Source: Patescibacteria group bacterium (GTDB lineage: Bacteria; Patescibacteriota; Minisyncoccia; Minisyncoccales; Staskawiczbacteraceae). From it: DNA of 37,564 nucleotides. The translations under genes and the position numbers were made by a program. The notes under the pieces are model-generated. The model did not search any database, had not been told where the DNA came from, and saw only the letters and a program-made list of their open reading frames with translations. The stretch is from NCBI GenBank assembly GCA_022703425.1, contig JAKLDQ010000005.1:1-37564 (forward strand). The letters run 5' to 3'. This document shows, one piece after another, positions 11,985 through 29,921 of the stretch. Position 1 is the stretch's first letter. Each line of letters starts with the position of its first letter.

Positions 11985-12057
11985 AAACGAGTAAGCTAGT
12001 AACTTGTAACTAGTAATTTTTATTTACTGATTACCAGTTACCAATTACTGGTTACTT
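11985..12057. repeat. Iterated GTAAC/GTTAC short repeats between rnc and nusB
   Basis: The spacer is built from permutations of AGTAAC, CTAGTAAC, CCAGTTACC and ACTGGTTAC, several of which can pair (TTACTGATTACC with GGTTAC partners). It begins within the nusB stop region. It is a low-complexity intergenic repeat of unknown role. Confidence 0.6.
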
Positions 12058-12497
12058 TTTTCTTCTTTATTTTCCTGTGGCTCGAGCTGTTTGTATACTG
12101 TCCCCAAAACTCCGTTTACGAATTTTCCGGATGTCTGGCCGGAAAAAGTCTTTGCCAGCTCGATTGCCTCATTAATGGCAACTTTCGGAGGAACTTCTTC
12201 TTTGTTTGAATATAAAAGTTCGTATAAACCCAAGCGCAAAACATTTCTGTCGACAATCGGAATCTGAGCAATCGGCCATTCGGGAGCCGCTTTTTCTATA
12301 ATTTTATCAAGCTCTTTTAAGTGTTCGTTTACACCTTTTATAAGATCCCAGACAAATTTTGTATCTTCCAAACCGGGCCCGAAATCGCCGAGATTCCTCT
12401 CCACAATAGGATTTAAGGAGTTCTCTTTTCTTCCGTAAAAATCCCATTCATACAGGCTCTGCATTGCAATTGACCTTGAAAGATGCCTTGAAGCCAT
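12045..12497 (-). CDS. nusB: Transcription antitermination factor NusB
   Basis: 150 residues. The N-terminus [20 protein letters not shown] matches the R-X-A-(L/M)-Q-LY-D motif. The core has [35 protein letters not shown], and the C-terminus [31 protein letters not shown] is diagnostic. NusB with S10 (NusE) forms the boxA-binding part of the rRNA antitermination complex. It lies 46 bases after rpmF in the same direction. There is no SD. Confidence 0.97.
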
Positions 12498-12851: not shown

Positions 12852-12886
12852 CAAAAAACAGCCCTTTTGTTAAAGGGCTGTTTTTA
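12852..12886 (-). terminator. Terminator of the surface-protein operon
   Basis: AACAGCCCTTT / AAAGGGCTGTT hairpin with T-runs on both sides, directly after the stop of the 1500-residue gene. It also separates that operon from rpmF. Confidence 0.92.
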
Positions 12887-12898
12887 GATATATTTTTA

Positions 12899-15800
12899 TT
12901 AGAAAGGCGAAATTTCTCTCCAATCTGGAAGACCGGAATCTCCTTTATTTGTCTTAACATTTAGATTGACCGAATTAATACAACATCCTGTTTCGTCGCA
13001 TATCCGCAGAGTTGCCACATATGTCCCGGCATTCTGATATACGTGAGACCTTGTTCCTTCGGCACTTAAACCGTATCCGAATGTCCCATCGCCAAAATCC
13101 CAGACATAACAGTCTCTCCGGCCGTCGCCATTCTCATCGCTTGCAGCCGTGCACTGCGAAGAAGTCAGTGTCTTGCATGCAAAGGGATCGCCATCCGCAT
13201 TCCAGCAGAAAGAAGTATGATCTCTGAAAACTACCGTATCGCCCGGCCGTGGCGGATTTGTTGAATCATATCCCAAAATATCAAACTGCGGATTCGGAGC
13301 CGGATGTGTTTTTGGAAAGCCGTATCGAACCCCGTTTATCCAAGCGGATGCCCCGCCGTTCGAATCCCAAACCTTAACCCTCCAGTAATAAGTTTCTCCG
13401 TAGGCAATGTGATCGCAAAGACTCGAAGGCAAGCCGTATACATCGCAATAATCATCAACCGGATCGGGTTTTACAAATACGATCTGCTCGTTCGTTGAGC
13501 CGGAATTCATCGACAAATTTTCATAAATCCTATCAACTGACGGCGACGCAAATGAGGAATCGTCATCAATTTGTATCTGAAATCTCATTTCCCTGTCACC
13601 GCTGGCATCTATATATCTCCATCTGAATATGGCCATTCCGGTTCCTGCAATCCCAGTACAGTAGCTTCCCTCCAGCGCTTGCAAATTATCAGCGGAAGGA
13701 GCGTCGTTTACAACACAAACCTGATCTATAAAACTGCACTCGTTGATTCCTGCGCCGACGACGCACTCGCACATTCCATAAATACATTCTAAATGGTGTT
13801 CCTGGTCAAGACAGACACAATCTTGGGCGCTTTCGCATTCATCTGCACCCGACCCTTCAACGCAGACACACTGTGAATTGACGCACTCCATGTGGTTGGC
13901 TTCGTCATCCACACAATCCAAACAATCCTCATTGATTGTCGGACATGAATCAATTCCCGGTCCCACGACACACTCGCACATACCGTACAAACATTCCAAA
14001 TGGTGTGTTTGATTCAAACATGAGCAGTCTTCTGAGCTTTGGCATTCGTTCGGAGCATCGCCTTCGACACAAACGCACTGATTTCCAACGCATTCTGTGT
14101 GATGGGCAGAATCCGGACAATCCGTGCAAATATCATTGAAGTTCTGGCACGAATTTTCACCGGGGCCCACAACGCATTCGCACATTCCGTAAACACATTC
14201 CAAATGATGAGTCTGGTTTAAACACGAGCAATCCTCGTCATTTTGACATTGATCCGCGCCTTCTCCCGGCACGCATACGCATTGGCCGTTCTGGCATTCG
14301 GTATGATTTTCAGATTCAGGGCAGTCTTCGCAATCGTCATCAATATTTTGGCACTCATTGATACCAGGCCCCACAACACATTCGCAGACACCATAGAGAC
14401 ACTCTAAATGGTGCTCTTGCGTCAGACACACGCAATCTGCAGAGTTAGCGCATGAAATTTCTGTATTTCCTCCGGGCAAGCATGTAATCGCACTGCCCGA
14501 AACATTACATGTTGCGACTGTATTAAGGCAATCAGAGTTGCTGTCGCACGGAATTCCTGTTCCCAATGATGAGCATTGTTTTTCTGCAGTACATTTATTA
14601 AGAGCGTTACATACCAAATCGCTCGTACAGCTTGCGCCTCCTCCGCCGGGCACGCATTGTCTCAAACTATTGCATGACAATCCGTTATTCTCGCATTGTT
14701 CGTTGTTTGTACATGCAATTCCCGTTCCCGTTGTTGAACATTGCCTGCCCACAGTACATCTGGTGGGGCTTGTTACACATCCGGAACTCGAGGTGCACAC
14801 AGCGCCTCCTCCGCCCGGGACACATTGATTAAATTCATTACATGACATTCCTGAATTCCGGCACTGGAAAGGATCATTACAGGTTAATCCTGTTCCCCCG
14901 CCAATACATTGTCCCAGAGAATTGCATCTTGTTAGGGTTGTTCTGCACGAGGTGCTGGTACAGCCTGTCGCACCGCCGCCTCCCGGCACGCACTGGTCAT
15001 ATTCATTGCATGCAAGCGGAAGTCCTAAACATTGCGAGCTATTTGAACAGGAAAGTCCTGTTCCGCCTTCAACACATTGATTCATTATGTTGCATCCGAG
15101 AGTATTTGTTACACAGTCTGTCGCGCTCGAACATCCCGCTCCGCTTCCCCCTTCAACACATTGATTATATGCATTGCATGTTCTATTGCTGCAATCAAGA
15201 TTTGTTGTACAACTGTCAGTTCCGCAACCCGCAACACTCCTGCAAACACCTGCGACACATTCTGCATGAGGATTGCTTTCACCTGTAGGGCATGTCTGGC
15301 AGTTCAAACATGATGAAACACCACAGGAATTGACCTGCCTGCAGACACCATAAACACATTCTGTGTGCGGATTTGAAGTCCCAGGAGGACACGGACAGAG
15401 TGAACAGTTATCGCTTACTGCACACCAGTTTCTTGTTAGACACGAGCCGTCGGGCTGACATTCCTGATGCGGTTTTGATTGTCCGTCTGGACAAGGACAG
15501 TCAGTGCAACTCACATTTGCTCCGCATCCGTTAACACTAATACATGTTCCGTTCGGACCGCATTCAGTATGCGGACTCGTTTGTCCCGGCGGACACTCAC
15601 AACCATAACAATTATCTGTCCCACAGCTGTTTACATATGTGCAAGATCCATTTTGACAAGCTTTGTGAGGCTTTTTCTGTCCCGCCGGGCAATTGCACGT
15701 GTTGCAATCTACGCTTGCTCCGCAAGAATTCACACTCCGGCACTCACTCTCATAACATACATTATGCGGATTACTTTGTCCCTCTGGACAAACTATCACA

Positions 15801-17401
15801 CTGCCGTCTCCACAATCATCACAACCCGTCCACTCCCCATCAATGCATGTATAATTTCCAGGACCGCATTCGCAAGGCATTGTTTCCCCAGCAATACATC
15901 CGGGGCAATCGCTCCACTGCCCTCCAATGCATACACTCGATCCTCCACCATTACTGCAAGGCGTAGTCGAACCCTCTGGTGAGCAACCGCCCATATCTGT
16001 GCAAGGGCCGTCGCATGTAATATCTATTTCCGGCTCTTTGCATGTTGCAGTGTTAGGAACAGCTCCAGGAATACAGCGGCCGGGATATGTAATTGTAATA
16101 GTACATTGCAAATTATCAGAACAGAATGAAGCAGTTGTTGTGTCCGGATCTCCGCAGTCAGCTTCGGTTCTCGTTATATCTGCCTCCTCACAATGTGCTA
16201 AGCCCGGCTGATATGGCCACATTCCTGTACCAGGACAAACCGTGCCAAGGACACAAATATTTTCAGCCGCCATTTCCGCCGAACATAATGTTTCGGGATA
16301 ACAATTGCTTCCTCCTGTGGGAGGAGTCGAAACACATTCATAATTTTGCACTTCAGTTACAACTTTTCTCCCTTCGCAGTGTGATCCCAGTCCTTGCGGC
16401 ATTGGACAAGTTTCTTTTGTTGTCTGAAATTCGTTATGAGTGCAGGCATACCAAGGGTCGTAGGGCACCAATACGCAACCATTAAAGATATGTGCCTCGA
16501 CAACGTTTTGGCCCACACAAAATGTCCCTCTGTCTTCGTCTGTCGCCCCGCAATCCACCCTTCTCCAATTGGCATCATCATAATCGCAGTATGCGTTCGT
16601 CGGATTTGGTGCCACACAGCTCCCTCCATCGAGAGTTTCCTCATAAATGGCATGAGGAGGAATGTATAGCACAGAACATTTTCTGTCCGGCCTTTGGCAA
16701 TTCTTGTCTTCCACCTCTGTAATCGGACAAACTGTTTGACCGGCTACACACGGAGTTTTCTGCCTTTTCCATACATCATTATTTTTGCAGAAAAATGTAT
16801 GAGTATCGCATTCATCAACAACCCTGGTTTCTGTTTCACATCTTTTGTCCACTGCATCACAAGTATTTGTTTTGTCTACAATATGACCGCCCTCACAGAC
16901 CCGCGTCGTTCCAACAAAGCAGTTAGTATCTGAAACTACGGTTTCAGGATTGCACTTTTTTTCTGTTGCATTGCATATTCTTTGTCTTCCAATGAGATGT
17001 CCGTTAACACAGGAATATGTTATGGGACCGCAGTTTGCAATAGTATGCGTCCCCCATTCGCACTTTCCCGTAGCTGAAACACACGCGTTACCGCGCATAA
17101 TAAGTTTGTTATCTTCACACCAATATTCATCGGACCCCCCGCACTTTAGTTGGTAATCAGTACCTTTTACACAACTCCAAATGTTTGGAGGCATGCATTC
17201 TGATGTTGCCGGATCAAACCAGTCAGTACATGCACAGTAGTACGGAGTTATTTTCATTGTTTCAGAATCTATGCATGAAAACTTCCACTTGGAATCACAA
17301 TCATAAGCATCTTCATCGCATCCCACCGAAAAAACAACTGCGGGGGCAAAAAAGACTGAGAGGCAGAGAAAGAAAAATACTTTTTTCAGTGATTTTTTCA
17401 T
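12899..17401 (-). CDS. Giant secreted cysteine-rich repeat protein with PKD domain
   Basis: 1500 residues. Signal peptide at about 1-26 (KKVFFFLCLSVFFAPAVVFS). Residues 27-530 are Cys-rich without strict periodicity. About 535-725 hold six CP-G-S-PH--C units. About 725-985 hold nine CN---QCV-GG-type units. About 985-1232 hold four HHLEC--G-CECVVG-G units alternating with three H-EC-N-QCVCV-G units. Residues about 1240-1370 look like a beta-sandwich (Fn3-like, YYWRVKVWDSNGG). Residues about 1395-1490 are a PKD domain (CYVWDFGDGTFG, then HVYQNAGTYVATLRICD). There is no C-terminal anchor or sorting motif. It is probably a disulfide-stabilised cell-surface adhesin or stalk. It starts one base after the stop of the 140-residue gene, and the operon order suggests joint export. 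Frames antisense to it are composition shadows. Confidence 0.88.
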   Translation of the reverse strand: MKKSLKKVFFFLCLSVFFAPAVVFSVGCDEDAYDCDSKWKFSCIDSETMKITPYYCACTDWFDPATSECMPPNIWSCVKGTDYQLKCGGSDEYWCEDNKLIMRGNACVSATGKCEWGTHTIANCGPITYSCVNGHLIGRQRICNATEKKCNPETVVSDTNCFVGTTRVCEGGHIVDKTNTCDAVDKRCETETRVVDECDTHTFFCKNNDVWKRQKTPCVAGQTVCPITEVEDKNCQRPDRKCSVLYIPPHAIYEETLDGGSCVAPNPTNAYCDYDDANWRRVDCGATDEDRGTFCVGQNVVEAHIFNGCVLVPYDPWYACTHNEFQTTKETCPMPQGLGSHCEGRKVVTEVQNYECVSTPPTGGSNCYPETLCSAEMAAENICVLGTVCPGTGMWPYQPGLAHCEEADITRTEADCGDPDTTTASFCSDNLQCTITITYPGRCIPGAVPNTATCKEPEIDITCDGPCTDMGGCSPEGSTTPCSNGGGSSVCIGGQWSDCPGCIAGETMPCECGPGNYTCIDGEWTGCDDCGDGSVIVCPEGQSNPHNVCYESECRSVNSCGASVDCNTCNCPAGQKKPHKACQNGSCTYVNSCGTDNCYGCECPPGQTSPHTECGPNGTCISVNGCGANVSCTDCPCPDGQSKPHQECQPDGSCLTRNWCAVSDNCSLCPCPPGTSNPHTECVYGVCRQVNSCGVSSCLNCQTCPTGESNPHAECVAGVCRSVAGCGTDSCTTNLDCSNRTCNAYNQCVEGGSGAGCSSATDCVTNTLGCNIMNQCVEGGTGLSCSNSSQCLGLPLACNEYDQCVPGGGGATGCTSTSCRTTLTRCNSLGQCIGGGTGLTCNDPFQCRNSGMSCNEFNQCVPGGGGAVCTSSSGCVTSPTRCTVGRQCSTTGTGIACTNNEQCENNGLSCNSLRQCVPGGGGASCTSDLVCNALNKCTAEKQCSSLGTGIPCDSNSDCLNTVATCNVSGSAITCLPGGNTEISCANSADCVCLTQEHHLECLYGVCECVVGPGINECQNIDDDCEDCPESENHTECQNGQCVCVPGEGADQCQNDEDCSCLNQTHHLECVYGMCECVVGPGENSCQNFNDICTDCPDSAHHTECVGNQCVCVEGDAPNECQSSEDCSCLNQTHHLECLYGMCECVVGPGIDSCPTINEDCLDCVDDEANHMECVNSQCVCVEGSGADECESAQDCVCLDQEHHLECIYGMCECVVGAGINECSFIDQVCVVNDAPSADNLQALEGSYCTGIAGTGMAIFRWRYIDASGDREMRFQIQIDDDSSFASPSVDRIYENLSMNSGSTNEQIVFVKPDPVDDYCDVYGLPSSLCDHIAYGETYYWRVKVWDSNGGASAWINGVRYGFPKTHPAPNPQFDILGYDSTNPPRPGDTVVFRDHTSFCWNADGDPFACKTLTSSQCTAASDENGDGRRDCYVWDFGDGTFGYGLSAEGTRSHVYQNAGTYVATLRICDETGCCINSVNLNVKTNKGDSGLPDWREISPF
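13700..15795 (-). repeat. Three classes of cysteine-repeat coding units
   Basis: Within the giant gene, roughly 15230-15795 encodes six CP-G-S-PH--C units, 14440-15230 nine CN---QCV-GG units and 13700-14440 seven alternating HH/H-EC units. The units are similar but not identical at DNA level, typical of old internal duplications. They lack the identical short repeats and regular spacers of a CRISPR array. Confidence 0.8.
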
Positions 17402-17402
17402 T

Positions 17403-17825
17403 TTAAATTGGCTTAATTTCCAGTGGAGAAATTTTCATAACTGAACTTACCTGGATACTGCCGTCCGGCTTTAGAATAAAAATTACCGAAACCGCGTCTC
17501 CTATTTTAAGATTGCTCAGATTTATGTCCGTCTTCTTGCCCGTTGAAATATCATACATCCGGGTATTTTCCTGAAGAGTTAAAGTAATTTCCCGCTTTAA
17601 AAAAGAAAGTGTAACATTATTGCCGTTAATTTTACTGATCTCCCCGACGGCAGAAACTCCCGAAACTAAGGGGGAGGATATTATCTTTAAAACTTCTTCT
17701 GTTTCTTTTGGACATTTTGGCGCACCGCTATACATAATTCCCAAAGACCCTCCCAAAATAAAAAAAACCAGGACAACTCCAACAAATAATCCCGTCAATA
17801 AATATTTGTTCATATTTAAATGCAT
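17403..17825 (-). CDS. Membrane-anchored small beta-domain protein (DUF5666-like)
   Basis: 140 residues, or 136 from an ATG four codons later (MNKYLLTG). One N-terminal transmembrane helix (LLTGLFVGVVLVFFILGGSL) is followed by a short linker with one Cys. The outer domain VSAVGEISKINGNNVTLSF, NLKIGDAVSVIFILKPDGSIQVSSVMKI has the strand pattern and DLK-GD-V motif of DUF5666-like OB folds. It is a paralogue of the upstream gene. Its start region is a hairpin (TTTGTCC / AGGACAAA) that would hide the AGGA before the first ATG. It is followed at once by the giant Cys-rich gene. Confidence 0.8.
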   Translation of the reverse strand: MHLNMNKYLLTGLFVGVVLVFFILGGSLGIMYSGAPKCPKETEEVLKIISSPLVSGVSAVGEISKINGNNVTLSFLKREITLTLQENTRMYDISTGKKTDINLSNLKIGDAVSVIFILKPDGSIQVSSVMKISPLEIKPI

Positions 17826-17850
17826 TTGTCCTGTGCGGACAAAAAATTAA

Positions 17851-18255
17851 TTATTTGTTTGTTTCAGTAAGAGGCATTATTGTAACAGCCAATGCCTGTA
17901 TTTTTCTGTTTTCAAGAACCTTAAAGCTTATGTTTACCGTTCTCCCTACTTTAATGTCGCCAAAAGAAACCGGCTGAGGCGCTGATGCGGTTTTTGCCAG
18001 TTGATAAATGGGAACATTGGTTCCGACTTCTATGGTTACGGCATCTTTTCCAAAAGAGACTGTGACGTTTCTTCCATCTGCTTTTGCTACCTGTCCGTAA
18101 GCTGTGCTTGCAACAACAACATCAGAGGACATTTTGTCGGCTATGAAAACGGCAGATCCCGGAAGATATGTCGTAACAAAATAGCCCGCGACACCCCCAA
18201 CAACTAAAAAAAGCACGCCTACGGCAATTGAAATTATCAAAGCTGTTTTTTCCAT
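17851..18255 (-). CDS. Membrane-anchored small beta-domain protein, paralogue
   Basis: 134 residues from the ATG at 18253-18255 (MEKTALIISIAVG); 13 upstream in-frame residues look non-coding. One transmembrane helix (ALIISIAVGVLFLVVGGVAGYFV) is followed by STAYGQVAKADGRNVTVSFGK and GDIKVGRTVNISFKVLENRKIQALAVTIMP, the same layout as its neighbour at 17403-17825. It is the first gene of the apparent three-gene operon ending in the giant surface protein. The pair may be accessory factors for export or anchoring of that protein, which is inference from order only. No SD is present. Confidence 0.8.
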   Translation of the reverse strand: MEKTALIISIAVGVLFLVVGGVAGYFVTTYLPGSAVFIADKMSSDVVVASTAYGQVAKADGRNVTVSFGKDAVTIEVGTNVPIYQLAKTASAPQPVSFGDIKVGRTVNISFKVLENRKIQALAVTIMPLTETNK

Positions 18256-18430: not shown

Positions 18431-18459
18431 TTGACAACAAGGCGTATAATTGGTATACT
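18431..18459 (+). promoter_or_regulatory. Promoter of the 339-residue secreted orphan
   Basis: TTGACA (18431-18436), 17-base spacer, TATACT (18454-18459). The leader contains the hairpin GGGGAAACTTTCCCC and then GGAGG before the ATG. Confidence 0.8.
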
Positions 18460-18522: not shown

Positions 18523-19542
18523 ATGAGAACCCTGATTCTTGCTTTGGCTGTTCTGGTGTTCTGCCCGGCCTGTTTCGGCAGAGAATACAAAGTCTCCGAA
18601 GGAGACGGAGAGGTTTCCAACGGACCCTGGCTTCAGCACAATGGATTGGCAAATGTCGGTCCGATCAAGTTACGTTTTCAAACTTGGCTTACTGACGGAG
18701 AAAGTCCGCAGACTGTTGAAGTATATCTTAAAAACTGGTTCAGCTTCTGTCACACGCAAGTTGAATACTTCGATGATCTGGAGGACATTGAGAGCTACGA
18801 GATGACTCCCTACGAGAGGGAAGTAAAGATCACATACAGCAGGAGTGCAAAGACCCTGACATCCAACGCTTGCGGAGAAAATGTTAAGATCAACAAGATC
18901 TTTATTACAAAGGCGCTGGACAGGTATGTTGCTCTAAAAATTAGGGGAACACGACGTTTGTGGAATTCGGCATCTGAAATGCCCGGCTGGTTCAAGGTGA
19001 ACTACGGCATTAAGAGCGAAGAAGATCTCAGCAAAATCAAGTACAATCCAAACGATCCAAAAGTGAATCTTTTGGATAACTGGCTTGTCGTTTGTTACGA
19101 ATGGAAGGCGTGGGAGCCCGTCGAAGAAGACGGCGTAAAACCTTACCGGATTCTTGCCGGAAAACAGTTCAATCTGGCAGGAGTCAACTTCTCGTGGTCT
19201 GAGTTTCCAATTCAGACTGCAGAGAAAAAGGTCAGGCTGACCTACAGTTGTCCTACCTCAGGCAAAAAAATCGCCTACGCGGCGCTTCCCGAGGGAGTCA
19301 AGAACCCCAGAGCTGAAAAGTTTTGGGAATCGTCTGAAAGCGAAAAGTCCCTTCCGATTCCAATCGGACGGACCATCAGCTTTCGCATCACCTCTGACAG
19401 AGGCAGCAAGTTCGTTGCCTTGACACCTATTGAGACAGAAAGGAAGTCGACAGGGATGTACTTCTCGTACGAAGTAAACTGGGACACCGAAGTTCCTCCA
19501 ACCAATGTAGTTGCCACTGCTCCGGCGACTACCATCAAATAA
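18523..19542 (+). CDS. Secreted orphan protein
   Basis: 339 residues. The signal peptide MRTLILALAVLVFCPACFG could be a lipoprotein signal with the lipid Cys at position 17. The mature part is beta-rich with several scattered Cys, Trp-rich stretches (NGPWLQHNGLANVG, MPGWFKVNYG) and duplicated-looking segments with VKITYSRSAKTLTSNACG and VRLTYSCPTSGKKIAYAA. That suggests two related beta-domains, which is inference. A Thr/Ala tail (PPTNVVATAPATTIK) ends it. GGAGG lies nine bases before the ATG. It has its own promoter and terminator. It uses more AAG, GAG and CTG-type codons than dnaE nearby. The function is unknown. Confidence 0.82.
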   Translation: MRTLILALAVLVFCPACFGREYKVSEGDGEVSNGPWLQHNGLANVGPIKLRFQTWLTDGESPQTVEVYLKNWFSFCHTQVEYFDDLEDIESYEMTPYEREVKITYSRSAKTLTSNACGENVKINKIFITKALDRYVALKIRGTRRLWNSASEMPGWFKVNYGIKSEEDLSKIKYNPNDPKVNLLDNWLVVCYEWKAWEPVEEDGVKPYRILAGKQFNLAGVNFSWSEFPIQTAEKKVRLTYSCPTSGKKIAYAALPEGVKNPRAEKFWESSESEKSLPIPIGRTISFRITSDRGSKFVALTPIETERKSTGMYFSYEVNWDTEVPPTNVVATAPATTIK

Positions 19543-19585: not shown

Positions 19586-20230
19586 TTAAATTTTTTCGGA
19601 CATCGAGCTTACGGGATAAAAAGTTTTTCTGTGGATCTTGCACGGCCCGTACTGCATTAAATTTGCATAATGCAGGCTCGTCGGATATCCCTTGTGCCTG
19701 TCAAACCCGTATTTTGGATATTTTTTGTGATATTTTTCCATCAGCCGGTCGCGCGTGACTTTTGCGATTATGGAAGCGGCGGCACAGGAAACAACCTTGC
19801 AGTCTGCTTTTATTATCGGCTTTTCAAAATATTTTGTGCCGATGCGGAAATTTCCGTCAATCAAAAGCACGCATTCAGGACGCGCGCATTGGATTTTGTT
19901 TTCCAGATTTTTAACTGCTTTTTTCATTGCAAGCTTCGACGCCTGCAAAATATTTATTTTGTCTATTATTTTTTCAGAAACAATCCCAACCCCCCATTCG
20001 ATATTTTTGTCAGCAATTATTTTTTCGTAAATGTTTTCCCGCTCGCCAACTGAAAGCATTTTTGAATCGCGGACTTTTGAAAATCCGGATATCGGAAACT
20101 TTTTTATATAAACAGCTCCAGCAACAACAGGCCCCGCCAAAGGTCCCCTGCCTGCTTCATCCAAACCTATCACAATTTTGTTTCCCTGTTTCCAAAAAAA
20201 TTTTTCCTCATTAAAATTCGGAAAAACCAT
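19586..20230 (-). CDS. rnhB: Ribonuclease HII
   Basis: 214 residues from the ATG at 20228-20230; the 48 codons further upstream run through a terminator palindrome and are not coding. KIVIGLDEAGRGPLAGPVVAGAV carries the first catalytic Asp-Glu pair. RDSKMLSVGERENIYEKI and VLLIDGNFRIG carry further conserved residues including the third Asp, and CAAASIIAKVTRDRLMEKY is the family motif with the last catalytic Asp. YGFDRHKGYPTSLHY and GPCKIHRKTFYPV follow. It removes ribonucleotides from RNA-DNA hybrids. No SD is present. Confidence 0.96.
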   Translation of the reverse strand: MVFPNFNEEKFFWKQGNKIVIGLDEAGRGPLAGPVVAGAVYIKKFPISGFSKVRDSKMLSVGERENIYEKIIADKNIEWGVGIVSEKIIDKINILQASKLAMKKAVKNLENKIQCARPECVLLIDGNFRIGTKYFEKPIIKADCKVVSCAAASIIAKVTRDRLMEKYHKKYPKYGFDRHKGYPTSLHYANLMQYGPCKIHRKTFYPVSSMSEKI

Positions 20231-20260
20231 ATTACGGTATTTTACAAATTTTAAGACAAA

Positions 20261-20297
20261 TAAAAAAGCCCTTGCGAGAAGCGCTTCTCGCAAGGGC
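20261..20297 (-). terminator. Perfect 30-bp palindromic terminator
   Basis: GCCCTTGCGAGAAGC meets its exact complement with no spacer (20268-20297), followed by TTTTTTA on the minus strand. It ends the transcript of the 66-residue gene about 200 bases beyond the stop and shields rnhB. Confidence 0.9.
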
Positions 20298-20308
20298 ATG
20301 ACAACCGG

Positions 20309-20462
20309 GAGCTGTTTTTGACTCAAAGCCTGTGAGTTTGAAAATAAATTTTTAACTTTTAAGCTCTCAGGCAAACGCGGAAAATCCGCGGAGAAACCGC
20401 AGATCTCTGCGGTTCACAGCTCGTCTGTTCTGAAACTGTGGCGCCGGCGACAAAACCGGCGC
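20309..20462 (-). ncRNA. Candidate structured RNA in the 3' region of the 66-residue gene
   Basis: A seven-bp helix, GAGCTGT (20309-20315) with ACAGCTC (20416-20422), closes a multibranch loop. It holds three hairpins: 20328-20336/20364-20372 (nine bp, one mismatch), CGCGGA/TCCGCG at 20376-20390 and AACCGCAG/CTGCGGTT at 20395-20414. A fourth stem, GCGCCGG/CCGGCGC (20441-20462), lies outside, next to the gene. The region is G/C-rich compared with its surroundings and has no coding potential on either strand. It is either an unusual 3' untranslated region or a small RNA processed from it. I know no RNA family that fits. Confidence 0.55.
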
Positions 20463-28406: not shown

Positions 28407-29921
28407 ATGAAAAAAATATTTTTTGCTTTATTATTATCCTCCCTGCTGATGGCATCTGCTCTGCCTGTTTTGGCAGATGATATATCTACGGTTACCGACA
28501 GCCAGCAAGCACTAATTAAGGGGCTGGACGTTAAAGAAATAAAAATCCTGCCGAACAGTCCTTTTTACTTTTTAAAAGAATGGCAGAGAAAAATTGCACT
28601 TACTTTCACTTGGAACAACACAAAAAAAGCCGAACTTCTTTCGAAAATTTCAAACGAGAAATTAGCCGAGATACAAAAACTTCTTGAAAGCGGAGCATCT
28701 GCGGATACAATCAAAAAGGCGCTTGAAAGCTACAAGCAGGAGATAAAAGATATAAAAAGCACGGCTGATAAGATAAAAACAGATGCAAAAAACGATCCCA
28801 ATATTAACAAGTTTTTAGAAAAATTTACAAACCAGCAGACATTGCATGAAGGCATCCTGCAGAAACTGAAAGATCAGGTGCCTGAACCTGTTATTGAAAA
28901 AATTACCCAGGCGAGAGAAGAACATTTGGAAAAATTCCAGCAGGTAATGCAGAGGCTGCAAAACAGAGACTGTCCCCGAATCGACAAGGATCCGTCATCC
29001 TGTGAAAATGGAAGAATGGTGCCCCAGAAAGATTCGAAGGGGTGTGTTACCGGATTCCAGTGCGTCGAAAATCAAAACGTATGCACAATGGAATATGCGC
29101 CTGTCTGTGGCGTAAACGGCAGAACATATGGCAATAAATGCGTCGCAGATAATGCGGGTGCTGCAATCGCCCACCAGGGAGAATGCGTTGCCGGAAAAAA
29201 GTGCGCAAGTGATTCTGATTGCGGAAAAATCTGCCCTTCCTGCGGAACGCCTGACGACAGCATAGAATATAAAAACTGTCTGAATGCTTGCACAAACCAA
29301 AAATGCGTCAACGGCGAGTGCAAAATGGCCGGGAATAACAACAAGCCAGAGTGCAGAAAAAACTCAGATTGTCCTACAATTTATTGCATTAAAGCTCCCT
29401 GCCCCGTTAACAAATGCATAAACGGCAAATGTAAGGTTGAGGAAACAGCCCAATGCCAAACTGACGCTGATTGCGCATCAAAAGGCGTAAATTACGTCTG
29501 CAACAAAGGTGTCTGCAATAAAGCAGTAACTCCATGCAACACGCTTTGGTATTATGATAACGACCACAAGTTCTGCCAGCAAAGGAGTTTCTGCGGAGCA
29601 TATATGTATCTCGGCCTGCGCACTTTCTCAGGAAAAACAGAGTGCATTTCAAATCTTGGCAGATCAACTCCTTCAACTCAGGAGGAATGTGCAAAAGCAG
29701 GCGGGACATGGGGAAAAATAGGCCTATCTCCCACGGATGCCTGCAATATAAAAGCCGCTGATTTCGGAAAAACCTGCACAGATCAAAGCCAGTGCCAGGG
29801 AACATGCATAGGAGAAAACGAATCTTCTGTATCTGGAAAATGCAGTGAATGGATAATTACTGTTGGATGCCACCCCATACTGCAGAATGGCAAAGTAAAC
29901 GGAACATTGTGCACCGATTAA
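28407..29921 (+). CDS. Secreted DUF5667-like protein with Kazal-type and Cys-rich modules
   Basis: 504 residues. The signal peptide is KKIFFALLLSSLLMASALPVLA. Residues ~45-185 are helical and resemble DUF5667 (PNSPFYFLKEWQRKIALTF, KAELLSKISNEKLAEIQKLL). At ~220-260 a Kazal-type module reads CTMEYAPVCGVNGRTYGNKC, then HQGEC with the canonical Cys spacing of these protease-inhibitor domains. Four or five Cys-rich units with C-SD-DCG, C-N-EC and C-NGKCK patterns follow to about 370, then a divergent Cys-rich C-terminus. It may be an extracellular inhibitor or adhesin. Similar Cys units in the giant protein suggest a shared surface repertoire. No SD is present. Confidence 0.85.
   Translation: MKKIFFALLLSSLLMASALPVLADDISTVTDSQQALIKGLDVKEIKILPNSPFYFLKEWQRKIALTFTWNNTKKAELLSKISNEKLAEIQKLLESGASADTIKKALESYKQEIKDIKSTADKIKTDAKNDPNINKFLEKFTNQQTLHEGILQKLKDQVPEPVIEKITQAREEHLEKFQQVMQRLQNRDCPRIDKDPSSCENGRMVPQKDSKGCVTGFQCVENQNVCTMEYAPVCGVNGRTYGNKCVADNAGAAIAHQGECVAGKKCASDSDCGKICPSCGTPDDSIEYKNCLNACTNQKCVNGECKMAGNNNKPECRKNSDCPTIYCIKAPCPVNKCINGKCKVEETAQCQTDADCASKGVNYVCNKGVCNKAVTPCNTLWYYDNDHKFCQQRSFCGAYMYLGLRTFSGKTECISNLGRSTPSTQEECAKAGGTWGKIGLSPTDACNIKAADFGKTCTDQSQCQGTCIGENESSVSGKCSEWIITVGCHPILQNGKVNGTLCTD

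What the first reader, a model, noticed from the sequence alone, without database searches (positions are those of the whole stretch)
12899..18255. Operon for a 1500-residue cysteine-rich surface protein built from three repeat types
The protein combines six CP-G-S-PH--C units, nine CN---QCV-GG units and seven alternating HHLEC/H-EC units with a beta-sandwich and a terminal PKD domain. It has a signal peptide but no anchor. It directly follows two paralogous single-pass proteins with a DUF5666-like outer domain. For a small-genome, probably host-attached bacterium, 4.5 kb spent on one disulfide-rich extracellular protein suggests an attachment or host-recognition structure. The high Cys content implies oxidative folding outside the cell.
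Basis: partly seen in the sequence, partly recalled or inferred. Interest (0 to 1): 0.6.

Follow-up and report, generated by a model that had tools for sequence, protein, structure and literature searches.

The report
Exchangeable giant surface protein locus
A tiny uncultured bacterium (Candidatus Staskawiczbacteria) keeps, at one fixed spot in its chromosome, a gene for a huge disulfide-rich exported protein whose outer part differs almost completely between relatives while its end piece and a small membrane partner gene recur, which looks like a mount for interchangeable attachment fibres.

Summary
The ORF, its repeats and the two small paralogues are real. The repeat types are far above chance, though two of the three are variants of one 33-35 aa unit, and a fourth type (residues 93-239) was missed. 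The informative part is elsewhere: the last ~270 residues (FN3-like sandwich, PKD, terminal LPxWxEIxPF). They occur once in this genome. They are nearly constant between relatives (114 of 120 family pairs similar) while the N-terminal parts are not (18 of 120). The gene sits in a conserved slot, dnaE-rnhB-[ ]-rpmF-nusB-rnc, empty in most genomes of the order. One to three copies of the small single-pass protein lie directly upstream of a giant gene in 13 of 18 family genomes that carry it, including giants of another kind. The tail is order-specific and is not a sortase signal: four genomes with the module lack sortase. The genome has Sec but neither VKOR nor a MdbA/DsbA-like oxidase; a conserved membrane pair (CPHC thioredoxin-fold protein plus CPxC multi-pass protein), never found together with VKOR, is a candidate substitute. 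Best reading: an exported, disulfide-stiffened surface fibre with an exchangeable distal part, probably for attachment; attachment itself is inferred.

The parts
12899..17401 (-). giant exported Cys-rich protein, 1500 aa
17321..17401 (-). signal peptide (residues 1-27, approximate); only hydrophobic stretch of the protein
   Evidence: hydropathy
15986..16282 (-). N-terminal Cys-rich region (residues 374-472) weakly similar to the G007 giant (27%, 1.3e-4)
15197..15790 (-). type A Cys repeats, six units of 32-34 aa (residues 538-735)
14432..15178 (-). type B Cys repeats, 28-aa register (residues 742-990; last two units degenerate)
13697..14413 (-). type C Cys repeats, seven units of 33-36 aa (residues 997-1235), same repeat family as type A; modelled as one beta-hairpin per unit (low confidence)
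13304..13714 (-). constant C-terminal module, first half: FN3-like beta-sandwich (residues 1230-1366)
12959..13159 (-). PKD domain (residues 1415-1481)
   Evidence: Pfam PF18911 3.6e-10
12902..12931 (-). conserved C-terminal tail LPDWREISPF (residues 1491-1500)
17403..17825 (-). small single-pass companion protein 1 (140 aa), 1 bp before the giant gene
17851..18255 (-). small single-pass companion protein 2 (134 aa from the conserved ATG; 147 aa if 18294 is used)
12854..12885 (.). bidirectional intrinsic terminator separating the unit from rpmF-nusB-rnc
12045..12497 (-). nusB, one border of the conserved slot
   Evidence: gene identified by sequence and synteny
19586..20374 (-). rnhB, other border of the conserved slot (in this genome with prot339, 18523-19542 +, in between)
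   Evidence: gene identified by sequence and synteny

Best explanation
The locus is a slot for giant exported surface proteins. Shown: one to three small single-pass membrane proteins are encoded directly upstream of a very large Sec-exported protein, between rnhB and rpmF-nusB-rnc. The constant C-terminal end (FN3-like domain, PKD, tail LPxWxEIxPF) is kept while the N-terminal part is exchanged between lineages. In this genome the N-terminal part is about 1200 residues of small disulfide-type repeats with even Cys numbers. Inferred: the repeats form a stiff, protease-resistant rod after oxidative folding outside the membrane; the C-terminal end stays at the cell (docking to the small partner, the membrane or the wall) and the variable N-terminal end points outwards and binds other cells or surfaces. 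The most likely role is attachment or recognition of a partner organism.
For: Constant end versus variable rest: 114 of 120 pairs of family locus proteins match in the C-module, 18 of 120 in the N-part. Module found once in the 719,889-base genome and full length only within the class. Slot conserved: of 41 loci with rnhB and nusB in order, 30 have under 1 kb between them and 8 have 3.5-9.2 kb; occupants are 344-2864 aa. Tail: 34 of 39 motif proteins have it within the last 10 aa, reversed motif 0; 29 DNA matches in 118 relatives versus 4 for the reversed pattern, and 3 in 286 other genomes of the phylum sample. In five proteins the tail is followed by a further hydrophobic or amphipathic segment of 17-34 residues, which suggests a membrane-proximal C-terminus. 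Companion: 13 of 18, also before unrelated giants. Same architecture in G007 (L112) and a 2094-aa, 12.7% Cys version in G015. SecA and SecY present.
Against: No host, binding partner, localisation or expression data. The companion is missing beside some module proteins (G030, G017, G004) and present beside other kinds of giants, so it is not specific for this tail. Cys- and His-rich repeats could also bind metal. The disulfide oxidase is only a candidate. The AlphaFold model of the repeats is weak (pLDDT 67.8, pTM 0.33) and has no structural match.
Confidence: 0.55

Rival explanations
1. A structural envelope or matrix protein (coat, stalk or biofilm scaffold) that protects or spaces cells and recognises nothing.
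For: Repetitive, disulfide-rich, low-specificity sequence; best Foldseek neighbours of the C-module include an archaeal S-layer YVTN/PKD protein, a biofilm scaffold (RbmA) and mastigoneme filaments, all weak overall matches; giant proteins are credited with the fibrous cell surface of Vampirococcus (PMC8080830).
Against: Structural coat proteins are usually kept by all members of a lineage, but this slot is empty in many relatives and the N-part is exchanged.
Confidence: 0.22
2. A surface metal-binding or metal-storage protein: His and Cys of the HHLEC/H-EC units hold Zn or Cu, not disulfides.
For: His is invariant at two positions of the repeat alignment; no VKOR/DsbA-like oxidase in the genome; the CPHC/CPxC pair lies next to a P-type ATPase gene fragment whose sequence resembles copper ATPases (by sequence, not tested).
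Against: Even Cys number in every clear unit and repeats without His (type B); Cys spacing typical of small disulfide domains; CPHC/CPxC pair present in most family genomes with Cys-rich giants (11 of 14).
Confidence: 0.1
3. A sortase-anchored (LPxTG-type) surface protein, the tail being a sorting signal.
For: The genome has one sortase and the tail begins with LP.
Against: No hydrophobic segment and no basic end follow the motif in the window protein; genomes G004, G005, G010 and G016 have the module but no sortase.
Confidence: 0.03
4. A phage or prophage tail fibre.
For: Modular, repetitive, collagen-like stretch in a relative.
Against: No match in viral contigs or phage records; flanks are housekeeping genes in every relative; Sec signal peptide.
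Confidence: 0.02
5. A polymorphic toxin or effector carrier.
For: One relative (G014) has a pretoxin-HINT domain straight after the tail (PF07591 2.7e-19).
Against: No toxin or HINT domain in the window protein; in G014 only four residues follow the matched HINT region; no immunity-like gene recurs beside the locus.
Confidence: 0.04

Closest known systems
Giant surface proteins of CPR bacteria such as Ca. Vampirococcus lugosii (PMC8080830)
   Same: Very large exported proteins with PKD, fibronectin or DUF11-type domains, proposed for recognition and fixation to a host
   Different: Those are described as membrane proteins and no shared C-terminal tail, fixed slot or small companion gene was described in the passages read
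Highly expressed Ig/PKD protein PMX.108_01191 of Ca. Minisyncoccus archaeophilus (PMC10936435)
   Same: Same class (Paceibacteria), signal peptide, Ig-like fold plus PKD, highly expressed by an archaeal parasite
FN3/PKD tandems of collagenases and archaeal S-layer proteins (ColH/ColG PKD, 1l0q)
   Same: PKD fold by sequence and structure
   Different: No catalytic or propeller domain; generic fold similarity only
MdbA-VKOR oxidative folding pathway of Gram-positive bacteria and CPR (PMC6744442)
   Same: Would serve the same need, disulfide formation in exported proteins
   Different: Both components are missing from this genome by Pfam search; an unrelated CPHC/CPxC pair occurs instead, and its redox direction is unknown

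Membership tests
PKD domain (PF18911/PF00801) | profile match above the gathering score | tested here: met
   40.2 and 28.7 bits against cut-offs 27 and 23.5
DUF5666 (PF18914), for the small proteins | profile match above the gathering score | tested here: not met
   16.7 bits against 27; only 1 of 9 family members even at E 0.01
LPxTG sortase substrates | LPxTG-like motif followed by hydrophobic segment and basic tail | tested here: not met
   protein ends at LPDWREISPF; no hydrophobic segment after residue 30
LPxTG sortase substrates | sortase in every genome with the signal | tested here: not met
   four genomes with the module lack PF04203
Known C-terminal sorting tails in NCBIfam (PEP-CTERM, PGF-CTERM, Por tail and the like) | NCBIfam profile match | tested here: not met
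   no such family at E 1
EGF-like and other curated Cys repeat domains | Pfam match over residues 28-1230 | tested here: not met
   no Pfam family there at E 1; no fold match for the repeat model, which is weak
Type IV pilins | prepilin leader (GFTLIE-like) followed by a hydrophobic helix | tested here: not met
   N-terminus MKKSLKKVFFFLCLSVFFAPAVVFSVGC; pilins are elsewhere in the genome
Polymorphic toxins | toxin or pretoxin domain at the C-terminus | tested here: not met
   none in the window protein; HINT only in the G014 relative
MdbA/VKOR oxidative folding | PF07884 and PF13462 in the genome | tested here: not met
   no match in G000; genome 96.5% complete
Host-attachment adhesins | binding to a partner cell | not testable with these tools
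   no binding, localisation or host data

The most novel reading that the evidence does not exclude
Paceibacteria use an unrecognised display system: a lineage-specific C-terminal module with the tail LPxWxEIxPF docks interchangeable giant proteins at the cell, helped by a small single-pass companion, and where the cargo is Cys-rich its disulfides are made by a CPHC/CPxC membrane pair that replaces VKOR and MdbA.
Probability: 0.22. Interest if true: 0.75.

Novelty: new variant of a known kind. Interest (0 to 1): 0.52.

Why it matters
Very little is known of how CPR bacteria recognise partners. A positionally fixed gene with a constant cell end and an exchanged outer end is the pattern expected of a recognition molecule. 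It gives a short list of candidate attachment proteins in any Paceibacteria genome (look between rnhB and rpmF-nusB, or for the terminal motif), which can be tested in the existing co-cultures with methanogens. The candidate thiol-exchange pair would explain how lineages without VKOR could fold such proteins.

Tried and rejected
Profile scan of genome contigs with the C-module alignment: no stretch conserved enough; nusB was used instead to name relatives and fetch the locus. Sortase anchoring, phage origin and known sorting tails rejected. Lipoprotein reading of the signal peptide (Cys at residue 28): the residues before it do not fit the usual lipobox and homologues lack a Cys there (judged by eye). 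DUF5666 membership rejected. Foldseek on the repeat model gave nothing usable. Phylum-wide matches to the C-module (115 of 287 genomes) are mostly partial FN3 or PKD hits, not the module. The first literature search with disulfide terms returned unrelated papers. VKOR/MdbA dependence of Cys-rich giants rejected: most such genomes lack VKOR.

Full report
Observation. The 1500-aa ORF at 12899..17401(-) is intact, begins with a signal peptide and has 181 cysteines. Two corrections: types A and C belong to one repeat family, which also fills a second, membrane-anchored protein of the same genome (contig C1, 859 aa), and a fourth repeat series lies at 93-239. All clear units have 4 or 6 cysteines. 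The two small upstream proteins are paralogues, separated from each other by 25 bp and from the giant gene by 1 bp. A strong bidirectional terminator at 12854-12885 isolates the unit from rpmF-nusB-rnc.

Organism. The window is contig 28 of a 719,889-base genome (96.5% complete). Its family is Candidatus Staskawiczbacteria of the Paceibacteria (names of nusB relatives).

The constant end. A search of 118 genomes of the order showed that most matches to the giant protein fall in its last 270 residues and run to its last residue. Alignment shows an FN3-like sandwich, a PKD domain and a terminal tail LPxWxEIxPF (one search failed and was repeated). AlphaFold supports the two folds (pLDDT 80.5; Foldseek neighbours FN3 tandems and PKD proteins). 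The module occurs once in this genome. It is present in 23 of 36 family genomes; matches covering nearly its whole length were seen only within the class. The tail is nearly always at the very end (34 of 39 proteins within 10 residues; reversed motif none). It is enriched in the order (29 matches versus 4 for the reversed pattern) and not in the rest of the phylum sample (3 in 286 genomes). Five proteins carry a further 17-34 residue hydrophobic or amphipathic segment after it. A 190-aa protein with a similar ending (NWREILPF) has no recognisable domain, so a like tail can sit on other bodies.

The slot. In relatives the gene lies between rnhB and rpmF-nusB-rnc, with dnaE next to rnhB. Of 41 loci with rnhB and nusB in order, 30 have less than 1 kb between them, 3 have 1-2 kb and 8 have 3.5-9.2 kb. 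Occupants differ greatly: 344 to 2864 aa, 0.4 to 12.7% Cys, in some genomes on the opposite strand. For 16 family proteins with the module the C-parts are alike in 114 of 120 pairs and the N-parts in 18 of 120. G007 has the same order of parts but a collagen-like stretch in place of blocks A and B. Several Cys-rich copies are cut by contig ends, so occupancy is underestimated.

The small partner. Proteins of the small family are strongly matched in 18 family genomes; in 13 the next gene downstream is at least 550 aa (P about 3e-10 against this genome's gene lengths, ignoring phylogeny). In four genomes of one genus (G009, G027, G031, G035) that gene is another kind of giant at another place, in one case with a Fib_succ_major domain. 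The small protein therefore looks like a general companion of giant exported proteins. It does not reach the DUF5666 cut-off.

Oxidative folding. SecA and SecY are present. VKOR and Thioredoxin_4 are absent from this genome, although both occur in CPR (PMC6744442) and co-occur in the 118 relatives (13 of 16 VKOR genomes). A gene pair on contig C1 encodes a membrane-anchored glutaredoxin-like protein with CPHC and a multi-pass protein with CPVC just after its first hydrophobic segment. The multi-pass protein has no Pfam or NCBIfam match. It is strongly matched in 33 of 118 genomes; the CPHC or CSHC partner is adjacent in 20 of 21 loci inspected. None of the 33 genomes has VKOR, while 16 of the other 85 do (Fisher P 0.005, phylogeny ignored). 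In the family the pair is present in 11 of 14 genomes with Cys-rich giants and 8 of 22 others (P 0.02, same caveat; G001 has VKOR instead, G004 and G005 have neither). Whether the pair oxidises or reduces is unknown.

Interpretation. Shown: export signal, repeats, constant end, exchanged N-part, fixed slot, companion gene. Inferred: that the repeats are disulfide rods, that the C-end is the cell end, that the companion docks it, and that the variable end binds partners. Very large PKD/fibronectin surface proteins were proposed for host fixation in Vampirococcus (PMC8080830), and an Ig/PKD protein is among the most expressed exported proteins of a Paceibacteria parasite of methanogens (PMC10936435); whether that protein has this module could not be tested.

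Novelty. Giant adhesin-like proteins of CPR bacteria are known in general. The tail, the order-specific module, the slot and the companion were not found in the family libraries used or in the papers read. I therefore call it a new variant of a known kind.

Noticed in passing
L204:979-1903 (contig C1 of the same genome, about 40,979-41,903): Conserved pair of a membrane-anchored glutaredoxin-like CPHC protein and a multi-pass CPVC protein without any family; never together with VKOR in 118 genomes. Candidate unrecognised thiol-exchange system.
   Followed up: partly
L120:7205-9433 (G014, Staskawiczbacteria): Homologue with a pretoxin-HINT self-cleaving domain (2.7e-19) straight after the WKEISPF tail; would leave the tail near a new C-terminus if it cleaves.
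   Followed up: partly
window 28407-29921 (+): 504-aa exported protein, 7.5% Cys, with DUF5667 (3e-17) and a Kazal-type protease inhibitor domain (4.9e-7).
   Followed up: no
L112:6241-9612 (G007): Giant homologue with a collagen-like GPP/Gly-rich stretch in the middle.
   Followed up: no
L235, L238, L239, L240: Small companion genes upstream of a different giant gene (978 to more than 2100 aa, almost no Cys) in one genus; one has a Fib_succ_major domain.
   Followed up: partly
window 18523-19542 (+): 339-aa exported protein divergent from the small genes, with a near-consensus promoter at 18431-18459; no family and no homologue in relatives' loci.
   Followed up: no
L028:3639-6218: Second protein of the genome with the same Cys repeat (10 units), preceded by YAWSDNMGWINF units and followed by membrane segments.
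   Followed up: partly
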